The notes under the pieces: generated by a model | Seen by the model: only the letters and a program-made list of their open reading frames with translations | Told to the model about the DNA's origin: nothing | Databases searched by the model: none | Shown here: positions 4,666 to 23,771 of the stretch, one piece after another | Position numbering within the stretch: position 1 is the first letter of the stretch | Layout: the number at the start of each line of letters is the position of its first letter | Translations under genes and position numbers: made by a program | IMG/VR virus record: IMGVR_UViG_3300017708_001613 | Coordinates: 1 to 24,462 of that record | From: a virus | Reading direction: 5' to 3' (one strand) | DNA length: 24,462 bases

Positions 4666-5703
4666 TTAAATATCTAGTTTTACTACTACTGTTGTTTCAT
4701 TATTATCAGATACCGGTGTTGCTTGAGCTAGTTTTGCTACTGCTATAAGTTCGTTAGTATCGTTATATAAACCTACCGATGTAAAGTAAGGGTTGAAATA
4801 ACTTCCAGTTATATTATCTGCTAAAGATCCACTACTATCTTTTAAACTAGTAGGATTCGAGCTAAAGTTAAATTCATTTTCCTTAATTGGACAATGATAG
4901 TTATATGTATAAATAGGTTGAGATGATTGCCAATCTAAGCTTCCAGAAAAATAGTTAGCATAGTATGCTCCTACTGCTGGGTTGGTTATTACTATTAGTC
5001 CATGTGAGTATATAACATTACCTACTACTCTGTTTGGTTGAGATGCTGATAGTATTAAATTACCGTTTTTGTCATCAATCAGTGTTGTTTTATAATCATC
5101 AAAACCGGGTACAACAAATTCTCCTTCTGTTTCATTTATATAGGTTTCTTCATCTTCTATATATTCATCGTCCTGTAGTGTTGTTGCCCCACCGTAAAGA
5201 GTATCTATTTCTTCAGCAAAACTTTCTGATACGTACTCTTGACCTGAAGCATCTACATAGTTAGAACTTGATACAGAAGTAGGAGGTTCTAACCTAACAC
5301 TTCCTGGTTTAATATAAACGCCAAATAAATTTTGCGGAATTGATATTACTGTAAATTTTCCTTGATCTCTCCTTTGATTAGCAGTATATGAGCTTTGCAG
5401 ATAGTTTTCATATGCTGAGCCTGACATTTGATCAGAGCCGGTTGTTGGCATCCCTGTATCATCATACCCTGAATAGTATAGGTGTTTAATACTATTATAT
5501 ACTAACCTAGAATAATGTTGAAATTTAGTTCCTTCAAGCTTTACATCTGCCGTTGAGGGTAACCATTCACCAGAACCAGAAATACCGATATAGGTTTCAA
5601 CACCGAAATCGTTGTGCTGACTCCCGCTTATACTAAAGCTTTTATGAGCTACATGAGAGGTTAAGTAGGAATCTTCTTTTTTTAATTTTTTGTAGGCAGC
5701 CAT
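4666..5703 (-). CDS. Virion protein, paralogue of the next upstream gene
   Basis: This 345-residue protein is not a family I can name. Its C terminus (about residues 270-345) has ENEFNFSSNPTS, then YFTSVGLYNDTNELIAVAKL and a final VVVKLDI. The upstream neighbour ends with EFNYSNNPSN, ITSVGLYNDNNDLLGVAKL and IRIKLDY, so the two are tandem paralogues sharing a C-terminal domain. The N-terminal half is different and contains GSGEW, SGSA and an acidic segment (YIEDEETYINETEGEF, about residues 180-196). Position between a collar fibre and other outer baseplate proteins suggests a baseplate-to-fibre connector or decoration protein. It lies three bases after its paralogue and two before the fibre gene, so it is almost certainly co-expressed with both. 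Confidence 0.6.
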   Translation of the reverse strand: MAAYKKLKKEDSYLTSHVAHKSFSISGSQHNDFGVETYIGISGSGEWLPSTADVKLEGTKFQHYSRLVYNSIKHLYYSGYDDTGMPTTGSDQMSGSAYENYLQSSYTANQRRDQGKFTVISIPQNLFGVYIKPGSVRLEPPTSVSSSNYVDASGQEYVSESFAEEIDTLYGGATTLQDDEYIEDEETYINETEGEFVVPGFDDYKTTLIDDKNGNLILSASQPNRVVGNVIYSHGLIVITNPAVGAYYANYFSGSLDWQSSQPIYTYNYHCPIKENEFNFSSNPTSLKDSSGSLADNITGSYFNPYFTSVGLYNDTNELIAVAKLAQATPVSDNNETTVVVKLDI

Positions 5704-5706
5704 TCA

Positions 5707-6729
5707 TTAATAATCAAGTTTGATTCTTATTAGGGCTTCTTTAGTAAAATCTTTAAGTAAAGGTTTAGATAACTTAGCTACTCCTAATAAATCATTATTA
5801 TCATTATAAAGCCCTACCGATGTGATATAAGCTTGTGGATTGTTAACCATAGCGTTATGTCTTAGTTCTCCTGATCCTGTTATGTTAGAAGGATTATTGG
5901 AGTAATTAAATTCTCCATTTCTTACTCTAACAAAAATATAATTAGAAGAAATAGTCTCTTCGGAGTTAAGCTTAAATGACTTTGCTCCTGCTAGATTCAT
6001 AACTCCAAATAATGTAGCATTATTAGCTCCATTTAAGTCTGCAGAACCAGTTACAAAGTCCATATTAGCTAAGTGGTTATCTAATGCTTGACCATTTAAA
6101 AGTATAACTCCAATATCCGGTAAAAATATTCCGAAAGAAGCTATATAACTATTATCTGAAGAATATCCGGTACCTCCATCGAAAGATACTCCATTTGAAC
6201 CTGATATTATTTCATATGCTCTTCCTGCATCTGTAAATCGTATAGATGAAACTTGACCGCTATCGTCTGTTAACTTTAATTCATTAGCACCAGAATCTTT
6301 TAAGGTTAGGTTAAATGTTCCTGGCATTAGTTTTTCTTTATATCTTGCTCTATCAACAGATATGGCAAAGAATCCTTTTGTAGAAGGAATACCTCCAAAA
6401 AGAAGATCTTGTTCTTCATCTCCTAATACTAAAGATCTGTACTGTCCGTATATAGCTGAAGATGGAGATTTACCTGCAACGTTGCTATTAAAAGGAGTTG
6501 CTCCTAAACCTGCTTGATTTCCGTATGCTATTGAAAATTGCACTGAAGCGTTTGAAAGATCTGAGCCTGTTTGGTATACGTTCAAATAGTAGTCACCACT
6601 GGTTGATGATTCTTGAGTAGATGAAGTAAAAAATGTTTGTAGTTCATATGTATCAGTTGACCATACGGTAGATGATATGGAATCTGAACTTACTATTACG
6701 TCTTCGTTATCGAATGCTTTAAATGACAT
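5707..6729 (-). CDS. Virion protein, paralogue of the next downstream gene
   Basis: This 340-residue protein shares its C-terminal domain (about residues 268-340: NGEFNYSNNPSN, YITSVGLYNDNNDLLGVAKL, IRIKLDY) with the 345-residue protein immediately downstream. The N-terminal region starts MSFKAFDNEDVIVSSDSISS and carries STSGDYYLNVYQTGS-type beta sequence. A KLMPGTFNLTLKDSGANELKLTDDSG segment (shown in two parts: KLMPGTFNLTLK and ELKLTDDSG) looks like a beta-sandwich. No catalytic motif, signal peptide or membrane segment is visible. Its placement among fibre and baseplate genes points to a virion component, possibly a fibre-attachment protein. The start is the ATG at 6729, six bases after the preceding stop; no clear Shine-Dalgarno is present. 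Confidence 0.6.
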   Translation of the reverse strand: MSFKAFDNEDVIVSSDSISSTVWSTDTYELQTFFTSSTQESSTSGDYYLNVYQTGSDLSNASVQFSIAYGNQAGLGATPFNSNVAGKSPSSAIYGQYRSLVLGDEEQDLLFGGIPSTKGFFAISVDRARYKEKLMPGTFNLTLKDSGANELKLTDDSGQVSSIRFTDAGRAYEIISGSNGVSFDGGTGYSSDNSYIASFGIFLPDIGVILLNGQALDNHLANMDFVTGSADLNGANNATLFGVMNLAGAKSFKLNSEETISSNYIFVRVRNGEFNYSNNPSNITGSGELRHNAMVNNPQAYITSVGLYNDNNDLLGVAKLSKPLLKDFTKEALIRIKLDY

Positions 6730-9239: not shown

Positions 9240-12200
9240 TTAACTTATACTTTTATTGTACTTATCTAATAGCTTCTGTCCTCCATACGTATCGTAAACA
9301 AAGTATGATAGGTGCTTACCGAACCATTGAGTTACCTGTCCTATCAAATTATTTTTAGGAAGTACTCCAATATCGTACCCCATCCATTCTGTCCAAGGCT
9401 TACATAAGAAGTACACTAGTGGTGTTAATTTAGGATTTTTTCTCATAAATTTAACAACTTTTCTAGCCCACATCTGGTAGCCTATAACTAGTCTAGGATC
9501 TACTAAGAATGTTCTTTCCCCCCATTGTTCATCTGCATTCCATATTTCTTCCGGTAGGTACCCTTGTCGGTATAGTTCGTTACATATAATCTTATTTCCA
9601 CCACCACTACCGGTTCCAGTACCGTAGGGTAAACCTTTAAGGTTATGAGATAATATTCCTTCCGATATGTAAGTCCAAGCTTTTTCTACACCTAATTGTA
9701 CTACATCTCCATCGTTATATTCTTCAATCTTAATAAACTTTTTACCAGAGAGTATATCTCCTTCTTTTAAATCTTTAGCAGGAATAAATTCGGCTTTATT
9801 ATCTACGTAAAGCCTATGTTCAGGTGAAACTATCAATTCTTTGTCTCCTATAAATAACTTTATTCTCTTACTATGAAAAACTTTTTTACCCATTACTATA
9901 GCGCTCATCCACTCCAAAGTTCTTTCTTGCCTTGTTCTTACAATATCGCCAACTACTATTCGACCTGCTGTTTTATTAGAACCATCCCCCATTAGTATAC
10001 TTGTCTGTAAACCTACACATGTTGACTGGTAAGATTGAACTACTTGTACAGTATCTAATGTTGTTCCTCCTGTTTTTAAGGTAAAGGTAACTGAACGTGT
10101 AGCTCCTGTTGAATTAGCACTAATAGATGCTACCACTGTTCCTGAACCTGTTCCGGAACCTCCGGAAGAGATTGAAGCCCAGTTTGCATTCTCAGATACT
10201 GTATAATTAATAGTTGCTGGAGTACAAAGTACAGGTAGGGAGATATTTTGAGCAACTTGACTTACAGAATTATATATATTAGGTCCTGCTATATAACCTT
10301 CTATTACGTTCTTTACTATTGAATCTGTTTTATTTGAACTAGTATTTCCAGCTACATCGGTTAAGTTTGCAGTAACTGTTAAAGTACCGTCTGGTAAGTT
10401 GTGGTTAGTTATAATGAAGTCTGATGTAGATATGTTTGTACCTGAAGGAAGATTATTAAATCCTTGATTATCTGTGTAAGGTGTTCCTCCACCTGTAGAC
10501 GATATGCTTATATTTACACTTCCTCTTTCATTATTCGGTATTCCATCTACTCTTATGTATATTGTGTTAGAACTAAGGGTTAATGCACTAGCATTAAATG
10601 CTACATTCTCTTTAAAATCTACCGAAGTTAAAGTTGGTATTACTGTATCTTTAAGACTTGCTGTTAATGTATTAGTATTTGTTTCTGAAGCAGCGTCTGA
10701 AGGGTCTTTTCTTGTAGCAAAGGACCCGGTGTTGTTACTAGAATCCTTTAATTTTAATTTAAGAAGTACGTCTTGACCGTCTGGAAGTGAAGTTGTATCT
10801 ATAGTTGCTGATTGAGTTACTGCGTTTGTTACAGTACCTGTAGCATATACTTCTGTGGAGTTACCGGATACCGAAGCAGTAACAAAATATGTTGAGTTTA
10901 ATTCTCCATCATAAATTAAAAACGGAACAGATGCTTTATTGCTATTGTTTATCGTACCGGTTGCAAGGTTCCATGTAGCTGTATATCCTACTGGTGGATC
11001 TTCATCAAATTTAGAACAGTCTGCAACTTCAAGTACCTTACCTTGATCTCCTCCTCCAGAAGTACCTTTAATTAAAAGACTATTACCGTCTTGTATTTTA
11101 AACCACTTATCTGCAGTTGCAACTCCAAAAGTTGTATTACCGTTTATATCGTCAAATATAAAATCATTTACTGCAGGTATAGTACCCGTACCGCTATGGT
11201 ATTTCTGTACACCTGAGAAAGAGCTTGCACAAGATCCTGTACCGTCAGCAAAGGTATCTACATCTAAACTAAACCCGTTATATTGATTTGCAGATCCTTC
11301 ATCTACCGTAACTATATCGTAATTAAGTCCTGGTGGATTTGCTACCTTAAAGATGTTTTGTTTATTAAGTTCTCCATCTGTAATTTCTATATAGCTTCCG
11401 CTTAGTTCTCCAGAGAGTTTTGGAGACTCATCATCTACCCATTTAGGAGCAGAGCCAGACATCGTAGCAATATCTTTTTTGTATATGGTTGTTTTTTCTC
11501 CTCTTTTTATAGTATTTAAAGGCTTTGTATAATTAACGAAGTAAGTTAATAAGTCTGTTTCTGCTTCAAGAGTAGCTGCTGCTATAATTACATCGTTAGC
11601 TAATGGAGTGAAAGATGCAGAGAAGTTTCCGTTGTTATCTCTAGCAACCCAGCTGTTTTGACCATGAGGACTATAATCAATAGGTATAATATGTGGATGC
11701 GCATTTATCAGCTGTTCTGTATGAGTCCAGTTATTACCTGCAGTATCAAATCTTTCTTTTATTGATTCTGAGCTAAACATTAAGTAGAAGTTTAAGTCAG
11801 TATTTGTGTTTCCTTCATACGGAGTATATACCGTGCCAAACCTTACGGTATCTGGAAATGTGTAAACCGTACTATCTGGATGATAGTATTCTGTCCCTCT
11901 TACGACTATTTCGCCTGGGTTTGAAGTGGTTCGATTTGAAAAGTCAGGTTTAAAAGTAAAGTTACTAATACCTCCTACTTTAGAAGGCCAGTAAGATTCT
12001 AATTCTTTTTGAATAAATACTCCTTTTCTTTGTATATTATACGAACCTCCATCAGATCCTGATATGTCTGTTATAGGTATACTTGCAGAGTATTCAGGTC
12101 TAGTCCCCGACATTTGAGGAGTTTTAGCTTTTGACCTTTCTAATAAATTTGGTTTTATAATAATACCTGTATCTAAAGTACTAGAAGCAGGAACAAAGTC

Positions 12201-14303
12201 TTTTATCATCTTAAATAAAACGTTATCATAAAACTTAAGTAGTCTTATAAAGTCATTTAATTCAAAACGTTTAATATTAATTAGTAGACTCTCTAAAAGT
12301 TTATTAAGATCTTTATATGAAGATTCACCGCTGTCTCTTGGATCACCTATATAATCGTCAATATTGAAAGAACTAGCTAGTTGAGTTAATAAGTAAGTAT
12401 CAATACTGTTAGTAGGAGAGAACCCTACTTCTAGTCTATGAGTATCTCTAACTCTATCTACTTCTGATTTTTGAATAGATTTATCTCTAGTTAAGACTTT
12501 ACCGACTGATCCGCTTATTCTATTTTCTACTCTAATCTTTTCAGTAGAAGATTTTCCGGTACCAAATTCAGTAAATTTATCGGATCCTACAGTATCACCT
12601 CCGTACTGTTTTATAGCTAAGTAACTAGAAGGAACTCCGAAACAGTTTATCAAGGCTCTTAATCCTCTCTCTGTTCCTTTAGTTTTCATTAAAAATGGTA
12701 AGTTGTGGTAAATTCTTTTATACACCTCACCTTCGTAATTCTTTCTAGATACGGGCTGTGAGTCAGATGGTACAGCAGGAACTTGCAAAAAGGTATTAAC
12801 TAACTCTTCGGTACTTCCGCTATCATAAGTATCTGCTATAAGGTATTTGAATAAATCATTAGAACCTTCTACAGAGTTATACAGTTTGGCTCCAAAGTTT
12901 ATTAACGTCTCTCTTACTATATCTTTAGATATACCTACATCTAGTCTATTGTCGTTATCGTACTTGTCTGTTACAGCTTTTGTATATATCCATAAATTAT
13001 CAAAATGCTGTCCTATCATGTTTACAAATAGTATTGCAGGATTGTTGTTAGTATCTTCTGCTAGGTAAGACGGTAGTGTGTTAGATAGTACGTCGTAATT
13101 CGAGGTGTCATAATTAGATGCGCTATTTAATTGACTTGAATACCAGTTTGCTGCTTCTGAAGATGTAGTATGGAGGTTAATGTGTGGTTTAGCAGAAGTA
13201 GATTTAGGCCAACTATTTGAACCACTTTCATAATATAAGAATCTATCGTAGTGATCAAAGTTATTTACTACTCCTTCTATAAGCTTATCGTACTTAGTTC
13301 TACTAGTAGTAGCTACTAAAATAGAGGATGAATCTAAAGCATCTCTACTAGATTGATAAGTTTGAATAAGTTCTACTTTATATTTAAAATTCTTTAATCT
13401 TTCTTGAGCTGATGAAAAGTTTATGAAGTTGCTATACTCTGAATAGTCAATGTTTATGTCTACGCTTTTTTCATTTAGATAAGAAAATATTTCTCTATTA
13501 GAATTTAAATTAGAAAAACTAAAAAGCTCGTTAAAGTCAAAATATTCTGTAGGAACTGCATCGCTGGTGTTTAGCTCTATGTTAAAGTTTGCTCCTGCTA
13601 GTCTTGGAAATACTTCAGGATCTTCTTCTATATCTACATTTATTTCTACAATGCAAGAGTCACTTACTTTTTCTACAACTTGAGCTTCTGATTTAATTCC
13701 GTAATCTTCTGGTAGAGGTTCGTATAGTTTTAATGCTACAGTAAACTTATCGTCTAACTCATAAACATCAACATTTGTTACTATAAAAAGATCATTGCTA
13801 CCTAAGTTAAGCCAAACTTCTTCAAAATAATTAGAATTATTTAATTTAGCTTTTATGTTTTCAGTTAAGGTAATAAACCTACTAGTATCAATTTTATCAG
13901 AATGTAATAATATTTCTTGTCTATCTTCTGAAATATTAGTTATATATAGCGGCTGTTTTGCGCTACTTATACTATATAAGTCATTAAGAAAGTGAAAAAC
14001 TATTTTATGATCAACTCCTGCAAAACCATTGGCAATAGATATTTTTTCTGGCTCTAGCGTAAAGTCTGTTATGTTTCCTTCTGCATCTGTTTCTACAGCA
14101 GAAGAGATATTATAATCATATAGGGAAAATACTTTAGCGTTTTCTAAAGAATAAAAATGAGTTTCTATATAATTTATAGAGGGATCATAGTTTTTGTTAA
14201 TCTGATAGTTTTCTATCAAATTTAAATCTGCAGACGTATAGTTTTCGTTTTCAGGAACCGAGTTATACTCTCTTTCTATAGTGGTGTACGTTATTTTTGC
14301 CAT
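9240..14303 (-). CDS. Giant tail/baseplate protein with Ig-like, BACON-like and C-terminal Hint domains
   Basis: This 1687-residue protein is probably a baseplate wedge or tail-tip component. It sits where T4 carries the large wedge gene 7, but homology to gp7 is not shown. Residues 1-720 are mixed alpha/beta and include LPFLMKTKGTERGLRALINC near 533-552, a pattern I know from phage tail proteins. Residues about 1120-1330 contain two Ig-like units with LPDGxxxxxKLxDxxxNTG-type ends (SLPDGQDVLLKLKLKDSSNN; NLPDGTLTVTANLTDVAGNT). A BACON-like domain follows at about 1355-1427 (ENANWASISS, ending VQVVQSYQ). BACON domains are typical of Bacteroidota proteins and some of their phages. A Hint domain spans 1429-1554, then a Gly-rich linker and a helical C-terminal domain. 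The start is one base after the preceding stop. The frame is intact, with no frameshift. Confidence 0.8.
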   Translation of the reverse strand: MAKITYTTIEREYNSVPENENYTSADLNLIENYQINKNYDPSINYIETHFYSLENAKVFSLYDYNISSAVETDAEGNITDFTLEPEKISIANGFAGVDHKIVFHFLNDLYSISSAKQPLYITNISEDRQEILLHSDKIDTSRFITLTENIKAKLNNSNYFEEVWLNLGSNDLFIVTNVDVYELDDKFTVALKLYEPLPEDYGIKSEAQVVEKVSDSCIVEINVDIEEDPEVFPRLAGANFNIELNTSDAVPTEYFDFNELFSFSNLNSNREIFSYLNEKSVDINIDYSEYSNFINFSSAQERLKNFKYKVELIQTYQSSRDALDSSSILVATTSRTKYDKLIEGVVNNFDHYDRFLYYESGSNSWPKSTSAKPHINLHTTSSEAANWYSSQLNSASNYDTSNYDVLSNTLPSYLAEDTNNNPAILFVNMIGQHFDNLWIYTKAVTDKYDNDNRLDVGISKDIVRETLINFGAKLYNSVEGSNDLFKYLIADTYDSGSTEELVNTFLQVPAVPSDSQPVSRKNYEGEVYKRIYHNLPFLMKTKGTERGLRALINCFGVPSSYLAIKQYGGDTVGSDKFTEFGTGKSSTEKIRVENRISGSVGKVLTRDKSIQKSEVDRVRDTHRLEVGFSPTNSIDTYLLTQLASSFNIDDYIGDPRDSGESSYKDLNKLLESLLINIKRFELNDFIRLLKFYDNVLFKMIKDFVPASSTLDTGIIIKPNLLERSKAKTPQMSGTRPEYSASIPITDISGSDGGSYNIQRKGVFIQKELESYWPSKVGGISNFTFKPDFSNRTTSNPGEIVVRGTEYYHPDSTVYTFPDTVRFGTVYTPYEGNTNTDLNFYLMFSSESIKERFDTAGNNWTHTEQLINAHPHIIPIDYSPHGQNSWVARDNNGNFSASFTPLANDVIIAAATLEAETDLLTYFVNYTKPLNTIKRGEKTTIYKKDIATMSGSAPKWVDDESPKLSGELSGSYIEITDGELNKQNIFKVANPPGLNYDIVTVDEGSANQYNGFSLDVDTFADGTGSCASSFSGVQKYHSGTGTIPAVNDFIFDDINGNTTFGVATADKWFKIQDGNSLLIKGTSGGGDQGKVLEVADCSKFDEDPPVGYTATWNLATGTINNSNKASVPFLIYDGELNSTYFVTASVSGNSTEVYATGTVTNAVTQSATIDTTSLPDGQDVLLKLKLKDSSNNTGSFATRKDPSDAASETNTNTLTASLKDTVIPTLTSVDFKENVAFNASALTLSSNTIYIRVDGIPNNERGSVNISISSTGGGTPYTDNQGFNNLPSGTNISTSDFIITNHNLPDGTLTVTANLTDVAGNTSSNKTDSIVKNVIEGYIAGPNIYNSVSQVAQNISLPVLCTPATINYTVSENANWASISSGGSGTGSGTVVASISANSTGATRSVTFTLKTGGTTLDTVQVVQSYQSTCVGLQTSILMGDGSNKTAGRIVVGDIVRTRQERTLEWMSAIVMGKKVFHSKRIKLFIGDKELIVSPEHRLYVDNKAEFIPAKDLKEGDILSGKKFIKIEEYNDGDVVQLGVEKAWTYISEGILSHNLKGLPYGTGTGSGGGNKIICNELYRQGYLPEEIWNADEQWGERTFLVDPRLVIGYQMWARKVVKFMRKNPKLTPLVYFLCKPWTEWMGYDIGVLPKNNLIGQVTQWFGKHLSYFVYDTYGGQKLLDKYNKSIS
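9243..9641 (-). other. C-terminal domain following the Hint cleavage site (residues 1555-1687)
   Basis: These 133 residues start LKGLPYGTGTGSGGGNK, a flexible linker. A helical, aromatic-rich domain follows, with NELYRQGYLPEEIWNADEQ, LVIGYQMWARKVVKFM and CKPWTEWMGYDIGVLPKNN motifs. If the Hint domain cleaves as predicted, this part would be released as a protein of about 15 kDa or stay bound non-covalently. I do not know its function. Confidence 0.5.
9642..10019 (-). other. Hint / bacterial intein-like (BIL) domain, residues 1429-1554
   Basis: The 126-residue segment has the key Hint residues in order. Cys1429 opens block A (CVGLQTSILMGDGS, then GRIVVGDIV). SPEH with His1496 forms block B (IVSPEHRLYV). 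The end is a block F/G pattern, TYISEGILSHN, with His1553-Asn1554. The residue after Asn is Leu, not Cys, Ser or Thr, so the usual splicing nucleophile is missing. This matches B-type bacterial intein-like domains, which mostly cleave their flanks. The length leaves no room for a homing endonuclease. Domain identity is read from motifs; cleavage is inference. Confidence 0.85.
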
Positions 14304-14304
14304 A

Positions 14305-15345
14305 TTAATCTATAAATGTATATCCTAATTCGTCCTCTTTATCAGGATCTTTAAAAGTAATAATTCTTGTTCTTACATTATTTTTAAAGTTAGACACTGC
14401 TTCAAATCCAGCTTTTATTTCATGAGCATTGTATCCGGCTTGTTTGAGCTCATCTACTAAAAAGTCTAAAGTCATATCACCGGCTTGATTTCTGCTGGAA
14501 GGAATTAGATATGTAAAGTTGTTAGCTCTCCCGTATCCTCTTCTTCTTCTTACTGAGTAGAATTCTCTTGCGTCTTTATCATCAGAGAAAAACCAAAAGT
14601 AGTTACTGCCCCTTTGTCTCCAGTATGACGAATTACTACGTGATGAGTAATAACCATTCCTACCTGCTACTATAATCCAGTAATTCTTAGGTTTTTCTAA
14701 AAATATTTTAGCATAGTATAATTGACCTTTTTTTCTTTTACTCATTAAGTCTACTATCTCTTGAGATGCTACACCGGTATCTGCTTTTGCTGCTTCGGCT
14801 TCTGCTTCTGCTTTTGCTTCTGCAGACTTTTCTGCTGCTTCAGCTGCTTTCTTAGCTGCTTCTTCTGCTTGTTTAGAAGCTAATTCAGTAGCTCTATTTG
14901 CTAAACTGTTAGCTTGTTCTAAAGTAGCTATTGTAGCGTTTGCTGTTTCTAGTTGAGTTCTTAGTAGTTGCATTTGCTCTGCATCTTCAAAGTTGAGCTC
15001 TCCACCACCAGCTAATTGAGTTTCTAATTCTAAAATTCTTCTATTGCTTTCTAGAATCTGGTTTCTTAAAGAAGCTACTTCGTCTAATAATGGTTGAATA
15101 CTTTCTAGTTGTGCATCAATTTTATATAATTCAGAACTCCTTTCTACTAAATACTGATGAGACCTGTCTTCTCCCTCTATTGGAATACTTACATAAAGTT
15201 TATCATATAACCTAAATAACTCTTCTATAGTATCTGGGTCAACAACAGGTTCAGGTTCTTTAAAAAACTTAAACTTGTTATCAATAACACTTACGTACTC
15301 ATTACGGTCGAATACTGTCTTTTTTATTTCTACCTTTTTAGACAT
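14305..15345 (-). CDS. Coiled-coil virion protein with Ala-rich rod and aromatic/Arg-rich C-terminal domain
   Basis: This 346-residue protein is not in a family I can name. Residues 1-65 form a charged N-terminal part (MSKKVEIKKTVFDRNEYVSV). Residues 68-150 are a heptad-like coiled coil (SLRNQILESNRRILELETQL; QLETANATIATLEQANSLAN). Residues 156-189 are an Ala/Glu/Lys-rich helical rod (KQAEEAAKKAAEAAEKSAEA). Residues 206-346 form a separate domain rich in Tyr, Trp, Phe and Arg (YYSSRSNSSYWRQRGSNYFW, then FYSVRRRRGYGR). The architecture suggests an extended rod with a globular head, as in baseplate spokes, whiskers or tape-like connectors. The start overlaps the end of the preceding gene by eight bases, and the giant tail gene follows after one base, so the three are probably translated together and may form one assembly. 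Confidence 0.6.
   Translation of the reverse strand: MSKKVEIKKTVFDRNEYVSVIDNKFKFFKEPEPVVDPDTIEELFRLYDKLYVSIPIEGEDRSHQYLVERSSELYKIDAQLESIQPLLDEVASLRNQILESNRRILELETQLAGGGELNFEDAEQMQLLRTQLETANATIATLEQANSLANRATELASKQAEEAAKKAAEAAEKSAEAKAEAEAEAAKADTGVASQEIVDLMSKRKKGQLYYAKIFLEKPKNYWIIVAGRNGYYSSRSNSSYWRQRGSNYFWFFSDDKDAREFYSVRRRRGYGRANNFTYLIPSSRNQAGDMTLDFLVDELKQAGYNAHEIKAGFEAVSNFKNNVRTRIITFKDPDKEDELGYTFID
14779..14880 (-). repeat. Alanine-rich coding repeat in the coiled-coil protein
   Basis: The plus strand repeats GCTTCTGCTT/GCTGCTTC-like units that encode an AEAAxKAAEA-type helix (residues 156-189). The copies are imperfect, so this is a low-complexity coding tract, prone to change in length, rather than a tandem DNA repeat. 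Confidence 0.6.
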
Positions 15346-23381: not shown

Positions 23382-23771
23382 CTAATATAATAAGTATTTT
23401 AGTTTTTTCTGATTTCTCCACTTGGATTGAGTGGGATATTTAACAAAATACACTTTGATATCGGCCTGATAAGCGTATTTAGTAAAGAATATCTTTTTAT
23501 CCGCTGTATAACTTTTATCCGTAAAGTACCATAACCCCTTATTTCCTTTAGCTCTATGTGGATAAGATACTACATATACTAATAAATCGGCTTGACTAGG
23601 GTATTTTACTTTAAAAACCTTAAAATCTGCACGATATTCATAATCTACTACGAATAATTGTTGGGATTGAACAGGAGTTGCGTATAATATACAAATAAAA
23701 AACAATAAGCCGGAGGCCGCCGCGCGAAACGCGCGCAAGTTGCCCCGAGAATTTTTATAGATATAATCCAT
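23382..23771 (-). CDS. Predicted secreted DUF6150-like repeat protein
   Basis: This 129-residue protein has a basic N-terminal region, a hydrophobic stretch (SGLLFFICILYA, residues 20-31) and a likely cleavage zone TPVQSQQ, so it looks exported. The mature part repeats a short beta unit: RADFKVFKVKYPSQ (47-60), ADLLVYVVSYPHRA (61-74), TADKKIFFTKYAYQ (89-102) and ADIKVYFVKYPTQS (103-116), with GNKGLWYFTD between. I recognise this as the DUF6150 type, known mainly from Bacteroidota and of unknown function. It lies two bases after the 59-residue gene, so the ATG at 23771 is reasonable. The coding region for residues 8-21 falls in a GC-rich island unlike the rest of the window; a TTG inside the hydrophobic stretch is a less likely alternative start. 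The gene was probably acquired from a host relative. Confidence 0.7.
   Translation of the reverse strand: MDYIYKNSRGNLRAFRAAASGLLFFICILYATPVQSQQLFVVDYEYRADFKVFKVKYPSQADLLVYVVSYPHRAKGNKGLWYFTDKSYTADKKIFFTKYAYQADIKVYFVKYPTQSKWRNQKKLKYLLY
23709..23750. repeat. GC-rich palindromic island inside the 5' end of the DUF6150-like gene
   Basis: About 32 of 42 bases are G or C, against roughly one third for the window. It contains a perfect hairpin CGCGCG-AAA-CGCGCG (23721-23735) and a smaller GCC-GGA-GGC dyad (23709-23717). In frame it encodes RGNLRAFRAAASG of the signal-peptide region. It resembles a dispersed palindromic unit of bacterial origin inserted in frame, but only one copy is in the window. 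Confidence 0.6.

What the first reader, a model, noticed from the sequence alone, without database searches (positions are those of the whole stretch)
9240..10019. Intein-like Hint domain inside a giant phage tail protein, predicted to cleave instead of splice
Sequence: Cys1429, SPEH with His1496, and His1553-Asn1554 are all present in 126 residues, with Leu at the +1 position. Known: B-type bacterial intein-like domains lack a +1 nucleophile and tend to cleave at one or both ends. Inference: the tail protein is self-cut after assembly, freeing or re-linking a 133-residue C-terminal domain. Because the Hint domain joins the end of a BACON-like domain directly, cleavage could also leave a thioester at the BACON C terminus, able to attach the virion to an amine on a cell or another subunit. 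Such maturation of a baseplate protein would be a new use of a Hint domain.
Basis: partly seen in the sequence, partly recalled or inferred. Interest (0 to 1): 0.8.

Follow-up and report, generated by a model that had tools for sequence, protein, structure and literature searches.

The report
Self-cutting domain in phage baseplate protein
A large protein from the tail-base region of an uncultured, probably Bacteroidota-infecting phage carries a complete intein-like self-processing domain of the kind called a type A bacterial intein-like domain; related phages show that such domains recur, with their catalytic residues intact, near the ends of phage proteins, where the piece behind them is swapped or lost, so phages may trim or re-join tail parts by self-cleavage.

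Summary
Residues 1429-1554 of the 1687-residue protein (9240-14303, minus strand) form a Hint domain: the AlphaFold model matches intein-like domains (VIA-align Z about 11-15), and a profile of relatives finds bacterial intein-like (BIL) domains first (E 2e-22). Cys1429, SPEH and His1553-Asn1554 are present and Leu is at +1.

Two interpretive points change. First, it fits type A BIL, not B: type A keeps the terminal His-Asn and can both cleave and splice. Second, freeing the 133-residue C-terminal domain cannot be the whole purpose. The closest relative (L200) keeps the Hint under purifying selection but ends 14 residues after His-Asn, and another relative (L055) has the same C-terminal domain without a Hint.

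Among 72 non-identical related phage Hints, the first Cys is present in all 71 that can be scored, His-Asn in 70, and no +1 residue is Cys, Ser or Thr (Lys in 64). What follows is exchanged repeatedly (tree: at least 8 changes), a pattern like polymorphic-toxin HINT cassettes.

Most likely it self-cleaves at Asn1554, with thioester chemistry at Cys1429 and possible nucleophile-free re-ligation. Activity is inferred, not shown. New variant of a known kind.

The parts
9240..14303 (-). 1687-aa baseplate-region protein carrying the Hint domain
   Evidence: ORF; homologue of immuto35A_161, next to gp25 and Baseplate_J genes
12066..14303 (-). conserved N-terminal part, residues 1-746; defines the orthologous tail protein family
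   Evidence: tblastn to many viral contigs and to Flavobacterium phage immuto, 51.6% over residues 170-576
10032..10271 (-). BACON-like domain, residues about 1345-1424, just before the Hint
   Evidence: PF13004 E 3.4e-5, PF19190 E 3.2e-4, both just under the gathering score
9642..10019 (-). Hint (type A BIL-like) domain, residues 1429-1554
   Evidence: purifying selection against L200, dN/dS about 0.26
10017..10019 (-). Cys1429, predicted block A nucleophile
   Evidence: conserved in L200 and in all 71 scorable of 72 related phage Hints
9816..9827 (-). Ser-Pro-Glu-His1496, block B [TS]xxH motif
   Evidence: SPNH in L200; the His is kept in 76 of 77 near-full-length Hints
9642..9647 (-). His1553-Asn1554, block G, predicted Asn-cyclisation site; +1 residue Leu1555
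   Evidence: His-Asn in 70 of 72 related phage Hints
9597..9641 (-). Gly-rich linker, residues 1555-1569 (LKGLPYGTGTGSGGG)
   Evidence: sequence; low model confidence here; Gly-rich linkers follow many related Hints
9243..9596 (-). C-terminal helical cap domain, residues 1570-1687 (KIICNEL...GYQMWAR...), modular and exchangeable
   Evidence: about 80 relatives at C-termini of other phage proteins; one per record in 14 of 15 records searched; model pLDDT 92.8 with no PDB fold match
14305..15345 (-). neighbouring coiled-coil protein; in several relatives the gene in this position carries the KIICNEL cap instead
   Evidence: synteny table, sequences

Best explanation
Residues 1429-1554 are a type A BIL-like autoprocessing domain placed between a BACON-like domain and an exchangeable C-terminal helical cap of a contractile-phage baseplate-region protein. 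Cys1429 can form a thioester with residue 1428, and Asn1554 can cyclise and cut before Leu1555. With Leu at +1, transesterification to the C-terminal side is impossible, so the expected products are mainly cleaved: BACON-side protein, Hint, and a free 133-residue cap beginning at Leu1555. A minor re-ligated product is possible by attack of the new Leu1555 amine on the thioester. The Hint behaves as a mobile processing cassette near phage protein C-termini; its kept function does not depend on which cap, or whether any cap, follows. Shown: fold, motifs, conservation, exchange of what follows. Inferred: chemistry, products, biological purpose.
For: Model and profile matches to BIL domains. Catalytic Cys, [TS]xxH and His-Asn all present and kept in L200 at 59% identity with dN/dS about 0.26, while the BACON next door is only 39% identical. 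In related phage Hints: Cys1 in 71 of 71 scorable, His-Asn in 70 of 72, +1 never Cys/Ser/Thr. Type A BILs with His-Asn and no +1 nucleophile cleave predominantly and can splice by amine attack (PMC4031507). Near-identical Hints are followed by different tails; the C-cap label needs 10 changes on the Hint tree, at least 8 forced.
Against: No biochemical or proteomic data. The block F Asp of gp41-1 (D107) aligns with Gln, and the following block F His with Trp, so rates could be low. The window's +1 is Leu while 64 of 70 related Hints have Lys. Several related Hints end at His-Asn-Lys, where C-cleavage would release almost nothing. The sample was gathered with patterns that favour the block A and B motifs, so Cys1 conservation is partly built in; His-Asn and +1 were not part of the patterns. 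dS is near saturation.
Confidence: 0.62

Rival explanations
1. Nucleophile-free splicing: the Hint removes itself and the Leu1555 amine attacks the thioester, joining the BACON end to the linker and cap, so the mature protein has the Hint-less architecture seen in L055/L273.
For: Type A BILs can splice this way (PMC4031507). L055/L273 carry the same protein with the cap joined directly through a Gly-rich linker and no Hint. Pelagibacter phage HTVC033P has a cap 57% identical to a Hint-linked one but without a Hint.
Against: Cleavage usually dominates in type A BILs. In L200 splicing would only add a 14-residue tail. The regions upstream of the cap in L055 and the window were not shown to be alignable.
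Confidence: 0.18
2. Conjugation: the Cys1429 thioester is resolved by an amine or other nucleophile outside the protein, linking the BACON end to another subunit or to the cell surface, in a Hedgehog-like way.
For: Closest solved structures are BIL2 domains of the T. thermophila BUBL1 locus; that BIL2 acts in conjugation of ubiquitin-like domains is recalled from memory, not checked here. In L200 and in the terminal Hints only the N-side product is substantial.
Against: No acceptor, no sterol-binding region and no partner identified. His-Asn is kept even in terminal Hints, which Hedgehog-type chemistry should not need.
Confidence: 0.07
3. The Hint is catalytically dead and kept as a structural spacer.
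For: Block F Asp and His are replaced; the L200-window pair sits on a long branch of the tree.
Against: Every residue needed for thioester formation and Asn cyclisation is kept in both window and L200, and almost without exception across the wider family.
Confidence: 0.09
4. A degenerate mini-intein caught while decaying after loss of its +1 nucleophile.
For: Small size without an endonuclease; structural similarity to gp41-1 intein.
Against: Not one of 70 related phage Hints has Cys, Ser or Thr at +1; they sit in variable C-terminal regions; the profile prefers BIL domains to inteins.
Confidence: 0.04

Closest known systems
Type A bacterial intein-like (BIL) domains, such as C. thermocellum BIL (2lwy)
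   Same: Hint fold, Cys at position 1, terminal His-Asn, no +1 nucleophile, variable host-protein region
   Different: Lies in a phage baseplate-region protein before an exchangeable helical cap; activity not measured
Tetrahymena BIL2 domain of the BUBL1 locus (6y75, 6tmm)
   Same: Best structural and profile match
   Different: A ciliate locus; about 19% sequence identity
gp41-1 phage intein (6qaz)
   Same: Similar size and fold, aligned end to end
   Different: gp41-1 is a splicing class 1 intein; the window has Leu at +1 and Gln where gp41-1 has the block F Asp
HINT autopeptidase of polymorphic toxins (PT-HINT)
   Same: Hint just upstream of an exchangeable C-terminal domain (PMC3482391)
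   Different: The cap has no recognised toxin domain; that survey reports HINT never with the contractile-tail-like T6SS and PVC systems
Flavobacterium phage immuto protein immuto35A_161
   Same: Orthologous N-terminal part and gene order
   Different: No Hint or cap visible at its C-terminus

Membership tests
Hint superfamily | Horseshoe all-beta Hint fold | tested here: met
   Foldseek and VIA-align to inteins, BIL and Hedgehog, Z about 11-15
Hint superfamily | Block A nucleophile and block B [TS]xxH | tested here: met
   Cys1429 and SPEH1496
Type A BIL | C-terminal His-Asn | tested here: met
   His1553-Asn1554; definition in PMC4031507
Type A BIL | No nucleophile at +1 | tested here: met
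   Leu1555 in the window, Val in L200
Type A BIL | Lies in a variable region of the host protein | tested here: met
   Identity to L200 falls from 72% (residues 1-746) to 39% in the BACON domain beside the Hint
Type A BIL | Cleaves, and sometimes splices, in an assay | not testable with these tools
   needs expression and mass spectrometry
   His1553-Asn1554 present
Class 1 intein | Cys, Ser or Thr at +1 | tested here: not met
   Leu1555
Class 1 intein | Block F Asp | tested here: not met
   Gln at the gp41-1 D107 position in the phmmer alignment
Hedgehog (Hog) autoprocessing domain | Sterol-recognition region after the Hint | tested here: inconclusive
   The region after the Hint is a confident helical bundle with no PDB match found by Foldseek
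Polymorphic toxin with HINT | Exchangeable C-terminal domain just after the Hint | tested here: met
   tail types vary behind closely related Hints
Polymorphic toxin with HINT | C-terminal domain is a toxin, with an immunity gene | tested here: inconclusive
   No Pfam toxin hit for the cap; no immunity gene recognised

The most novel reading that the evidence does not exclude
Tailed phages carry a family of BIL-type domains, strictly lacking a +1 nucleophile and mostly with Lys there, which form a covalent bond from the cut end of a tail protein to an amine on another virion subunit or on the host surface.
Probability: 0.08. Interest if true: 0.88.

Novelty: new variant of a known kind. Interest (0 to 1): 0.6.

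Why it matters
Autoproteolysis by BIL/HINT domains is described for secreted bacterial proteins and toxins, and one broad survey found HINT never with contractile injection systems. A recurrent, catalytically intact family near the ends of phage proteins, with the downstream piece swapped freely, would be a general maturation or part-exchange mechanism for virion proteins, directly testable by mass spectrometry, and a source of new self-cleaving or ligating domains.

Tried and rejected
A close-sequence scan of viral contigs with the Hint alone found nothing; relatives came only through the C-terminal cap, the N-terminal part or a DNA pattern. PHROGs had no hit for the protein. No solved structure matches the N-terminal part by profile, so its equivalence to a particular T4 baseplate protein is not settled. 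The cap has no PDB fold match (Foldseek best E 2.5), which does not prove a new fold. The phage isolate collection gave no record with both the Hint and the cap of this kind; a Vibrio phage hit was opened but not resolved. Decaying-intein and type B readings were rejected on the +1 and His-Asn evidence. The paper library is open-access only, so 'not described' is limited to it.

Full report
What is there. The ORF at 9240-14303 (-) encodes 1687 residues. The window is a 24.5-kb record classed as a virus. Gene order gp25-like, Baseplate_J-like, two further genes, then this protein is matched, with the same flanking genes, in the cultured Flavobacterium phage immuto, whose homologue follows genes annotated as baseplate assembly and wedge proteins. 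So this is a baseplate-region protein of a contractile phage, probably of Bacteroidota. The exact T4 equivalent is not settled.

Is the Hint real? Single-sequence searches are weak (Pfam E 0.013; gp41-1 intein E 0.008 over the whole domain; NCBIfam E 0.024). The AlphaFold model (Hint about pLDDT 75) matches solved Hint structures across the superfamily: BIL2 of Tetrahymena Z 14.9, Ssp DnaB mini-intein 14.8, C. thermocellum BIL 13.4, gp41-1 about 13, Hedgehog 12.8 (Foldseek E 1e-9 for BIL2). A profile of 16 phage Hints with the window first ranks BIL2 (2e-22) and C. thermocellum BIL (1e-19) above gp41-1 (3e-12) and Hedgehog (6e-4). One caution: rows of A6 and A9 include clear Hints, which helps these matches; tblastn with the window Hint alone still reaches terminal phage Hints at E 4e-7 to 1e-5, and those score above the Pfam cutoffs (for example L188, Intein_splicing E 6e-17).

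Which kind? Published definitions (PMC4031507; PMC7765530): type A BILs end in His-Asn, lack the +1 nucleophile, mainly cleave and can splice by amine attack on the thioester; type B BILs lack the block G motif. The window fits type A, not B. It is not a class 1 intein: Leu at +1, and Gln where gp41-1 has the block F Asp.

Is it likely active? The closest relative, L200 (76% over the conserved region, full synteny), keeps the Hint at 59% identity with Cys1, SPNH and Ser-His-Asn, Val at +1. dN/dS is about 0.26 for the Hint against 0.45 for the adjacent BACON (dS is near saturation, so only the order is safe). Across 72 non-identical Hints from the loci, Cys1 is present in all 71 scorable, His-Asn in 70, and +1 is Lys 64 times, Phe 3, Ala, Gly and Arg once each, never Cys, Ser or Thr. 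The search patterns favoured blocks A and B, so only the His-Asn and +1 counts are unbiased. Such conservation is hard to explain for a dead domain.

What does it act on? The C-terminal domain (KIICNEL...GYQMWAR...CKPWTEWM) is a confident six-helix bundle (pLDDT 92.8) with no PDB match. It is a modular C-terminal cap: about 80 relatives sit at the ends of varied phage proteins, one per record in 14 of 15 records searched. In several relatives it ends the protein encoded between the g15338 homologue and the homologue of our protein, that is, in the position of the window's coiled-coil gene 14305-15345. In L055/L273 it ends the same protein as here but without a Hint. Hint and cap are therefore independent modules.

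How general? Hint followed by a cap of the I/V-C-T type occurs in several other carriers, including DUF4815 proteins of other large phages. Elsewhere the Hint is followed by a second Hint, by other short domains, by the body of a gpJ-like protein, or by 1-14 residues. Bacterial proteins, for instance of Bacteroidota and Pseudomonadota, also end in Hint-His-Asn-Lys. On a tree of 76 Hints the label 'cap follows' needs 10 changes, at least 8 forced by well-supported branches; the window and L200 form their own long-branch clade, loosely beside a group of terminal Hints of Bacteroidota and phages. A cap 57% identical to a Hint-linked one occurs without a Hint in Pelagibacter phage HTVC033P.

Mechanism. 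Best supported: type A BIL autoprocessing, with C-terminal cleavage at Asn1554 and a thioester at Cys1429; products mainly cleaved, re-ligation possible. Freeing this particular cap cannot be the conserved purpose, because L200 and the terminal Hints keep the full active site with nothing substantial behind it. If splicing occurs, the window product would resemble the Hint-less L055 architecture, which keeps that rival alive. Conjugation through the thioester is possible but untested. All chemistry is inferred.

Novelty. Open papers found by the searches describe phage Hints as inteins, for example in terminases (PMC3556154), not as processing domains of virion proteins. BFVD already labels phage proteins 'Hint domain containing', so the presence is annotated though apparently unexplained. 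The polymorphic-toxin survey states HINT was never found with T6SS or PVC systems (PMC3482391), which makes a contractile-phage baseplate-region example notable. I rate it a new variant of a known kind.

Noticed in passing
L106 residues 1264-1586, L097 1285-1605, L127 1238-1683, L175 264-775, L193 435-858: Two to three Hint domains in tandem in single phage proteins, nearly all ending in His-Asn, often with Lys at +1.
   Followed up: partly
L178, L186, L188, L191, L192; bacterial loci L285, L287, L292, L298, L302, L303: Proteins that end exactly at Hint-His-Asn-Lys; C-cleavage would free one residue, yet His-Asn-Lys is kept. Unexplained.
   Followed up: partly
L104 residues 16-151; L179 8-161; L189 4-157: Hint at the very N-terminus of phage proteins; L104 has gpJ-family domains behind it (PF24801, PF13550).
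   Followed up: no
window 14305-15345 (-): Coiled-coil protein whose C-terminal part differs from relatives, where the gene in that position often carries the KIICNEL cap; in phage immuto the homologue is a gene of only 339 bases.
   Followed up: partly
window 23382-23771 (-): DUF6150 protein (PF19647 E 2e-22) made of short repeats.
   Followed up: no
window 4666-5703 and 5707-6729 (-): Two adjacent proteins with similar C-terminal parts, probably a tandem duplication in the tail cluster.
   Followed up: no
L145/L290: A Hint-cap phage contig (32,453 bases) also appears in a Flavobacterium single-cell genome (SCGC AAA160-P02), suggesting the host.
   Followed up: no
L121 residues 548-610: DUF4815 phage protein with a match to the E1_FCCH domain of ubiquitin-activating enzymes (E 6e-16).
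   Followed up: no
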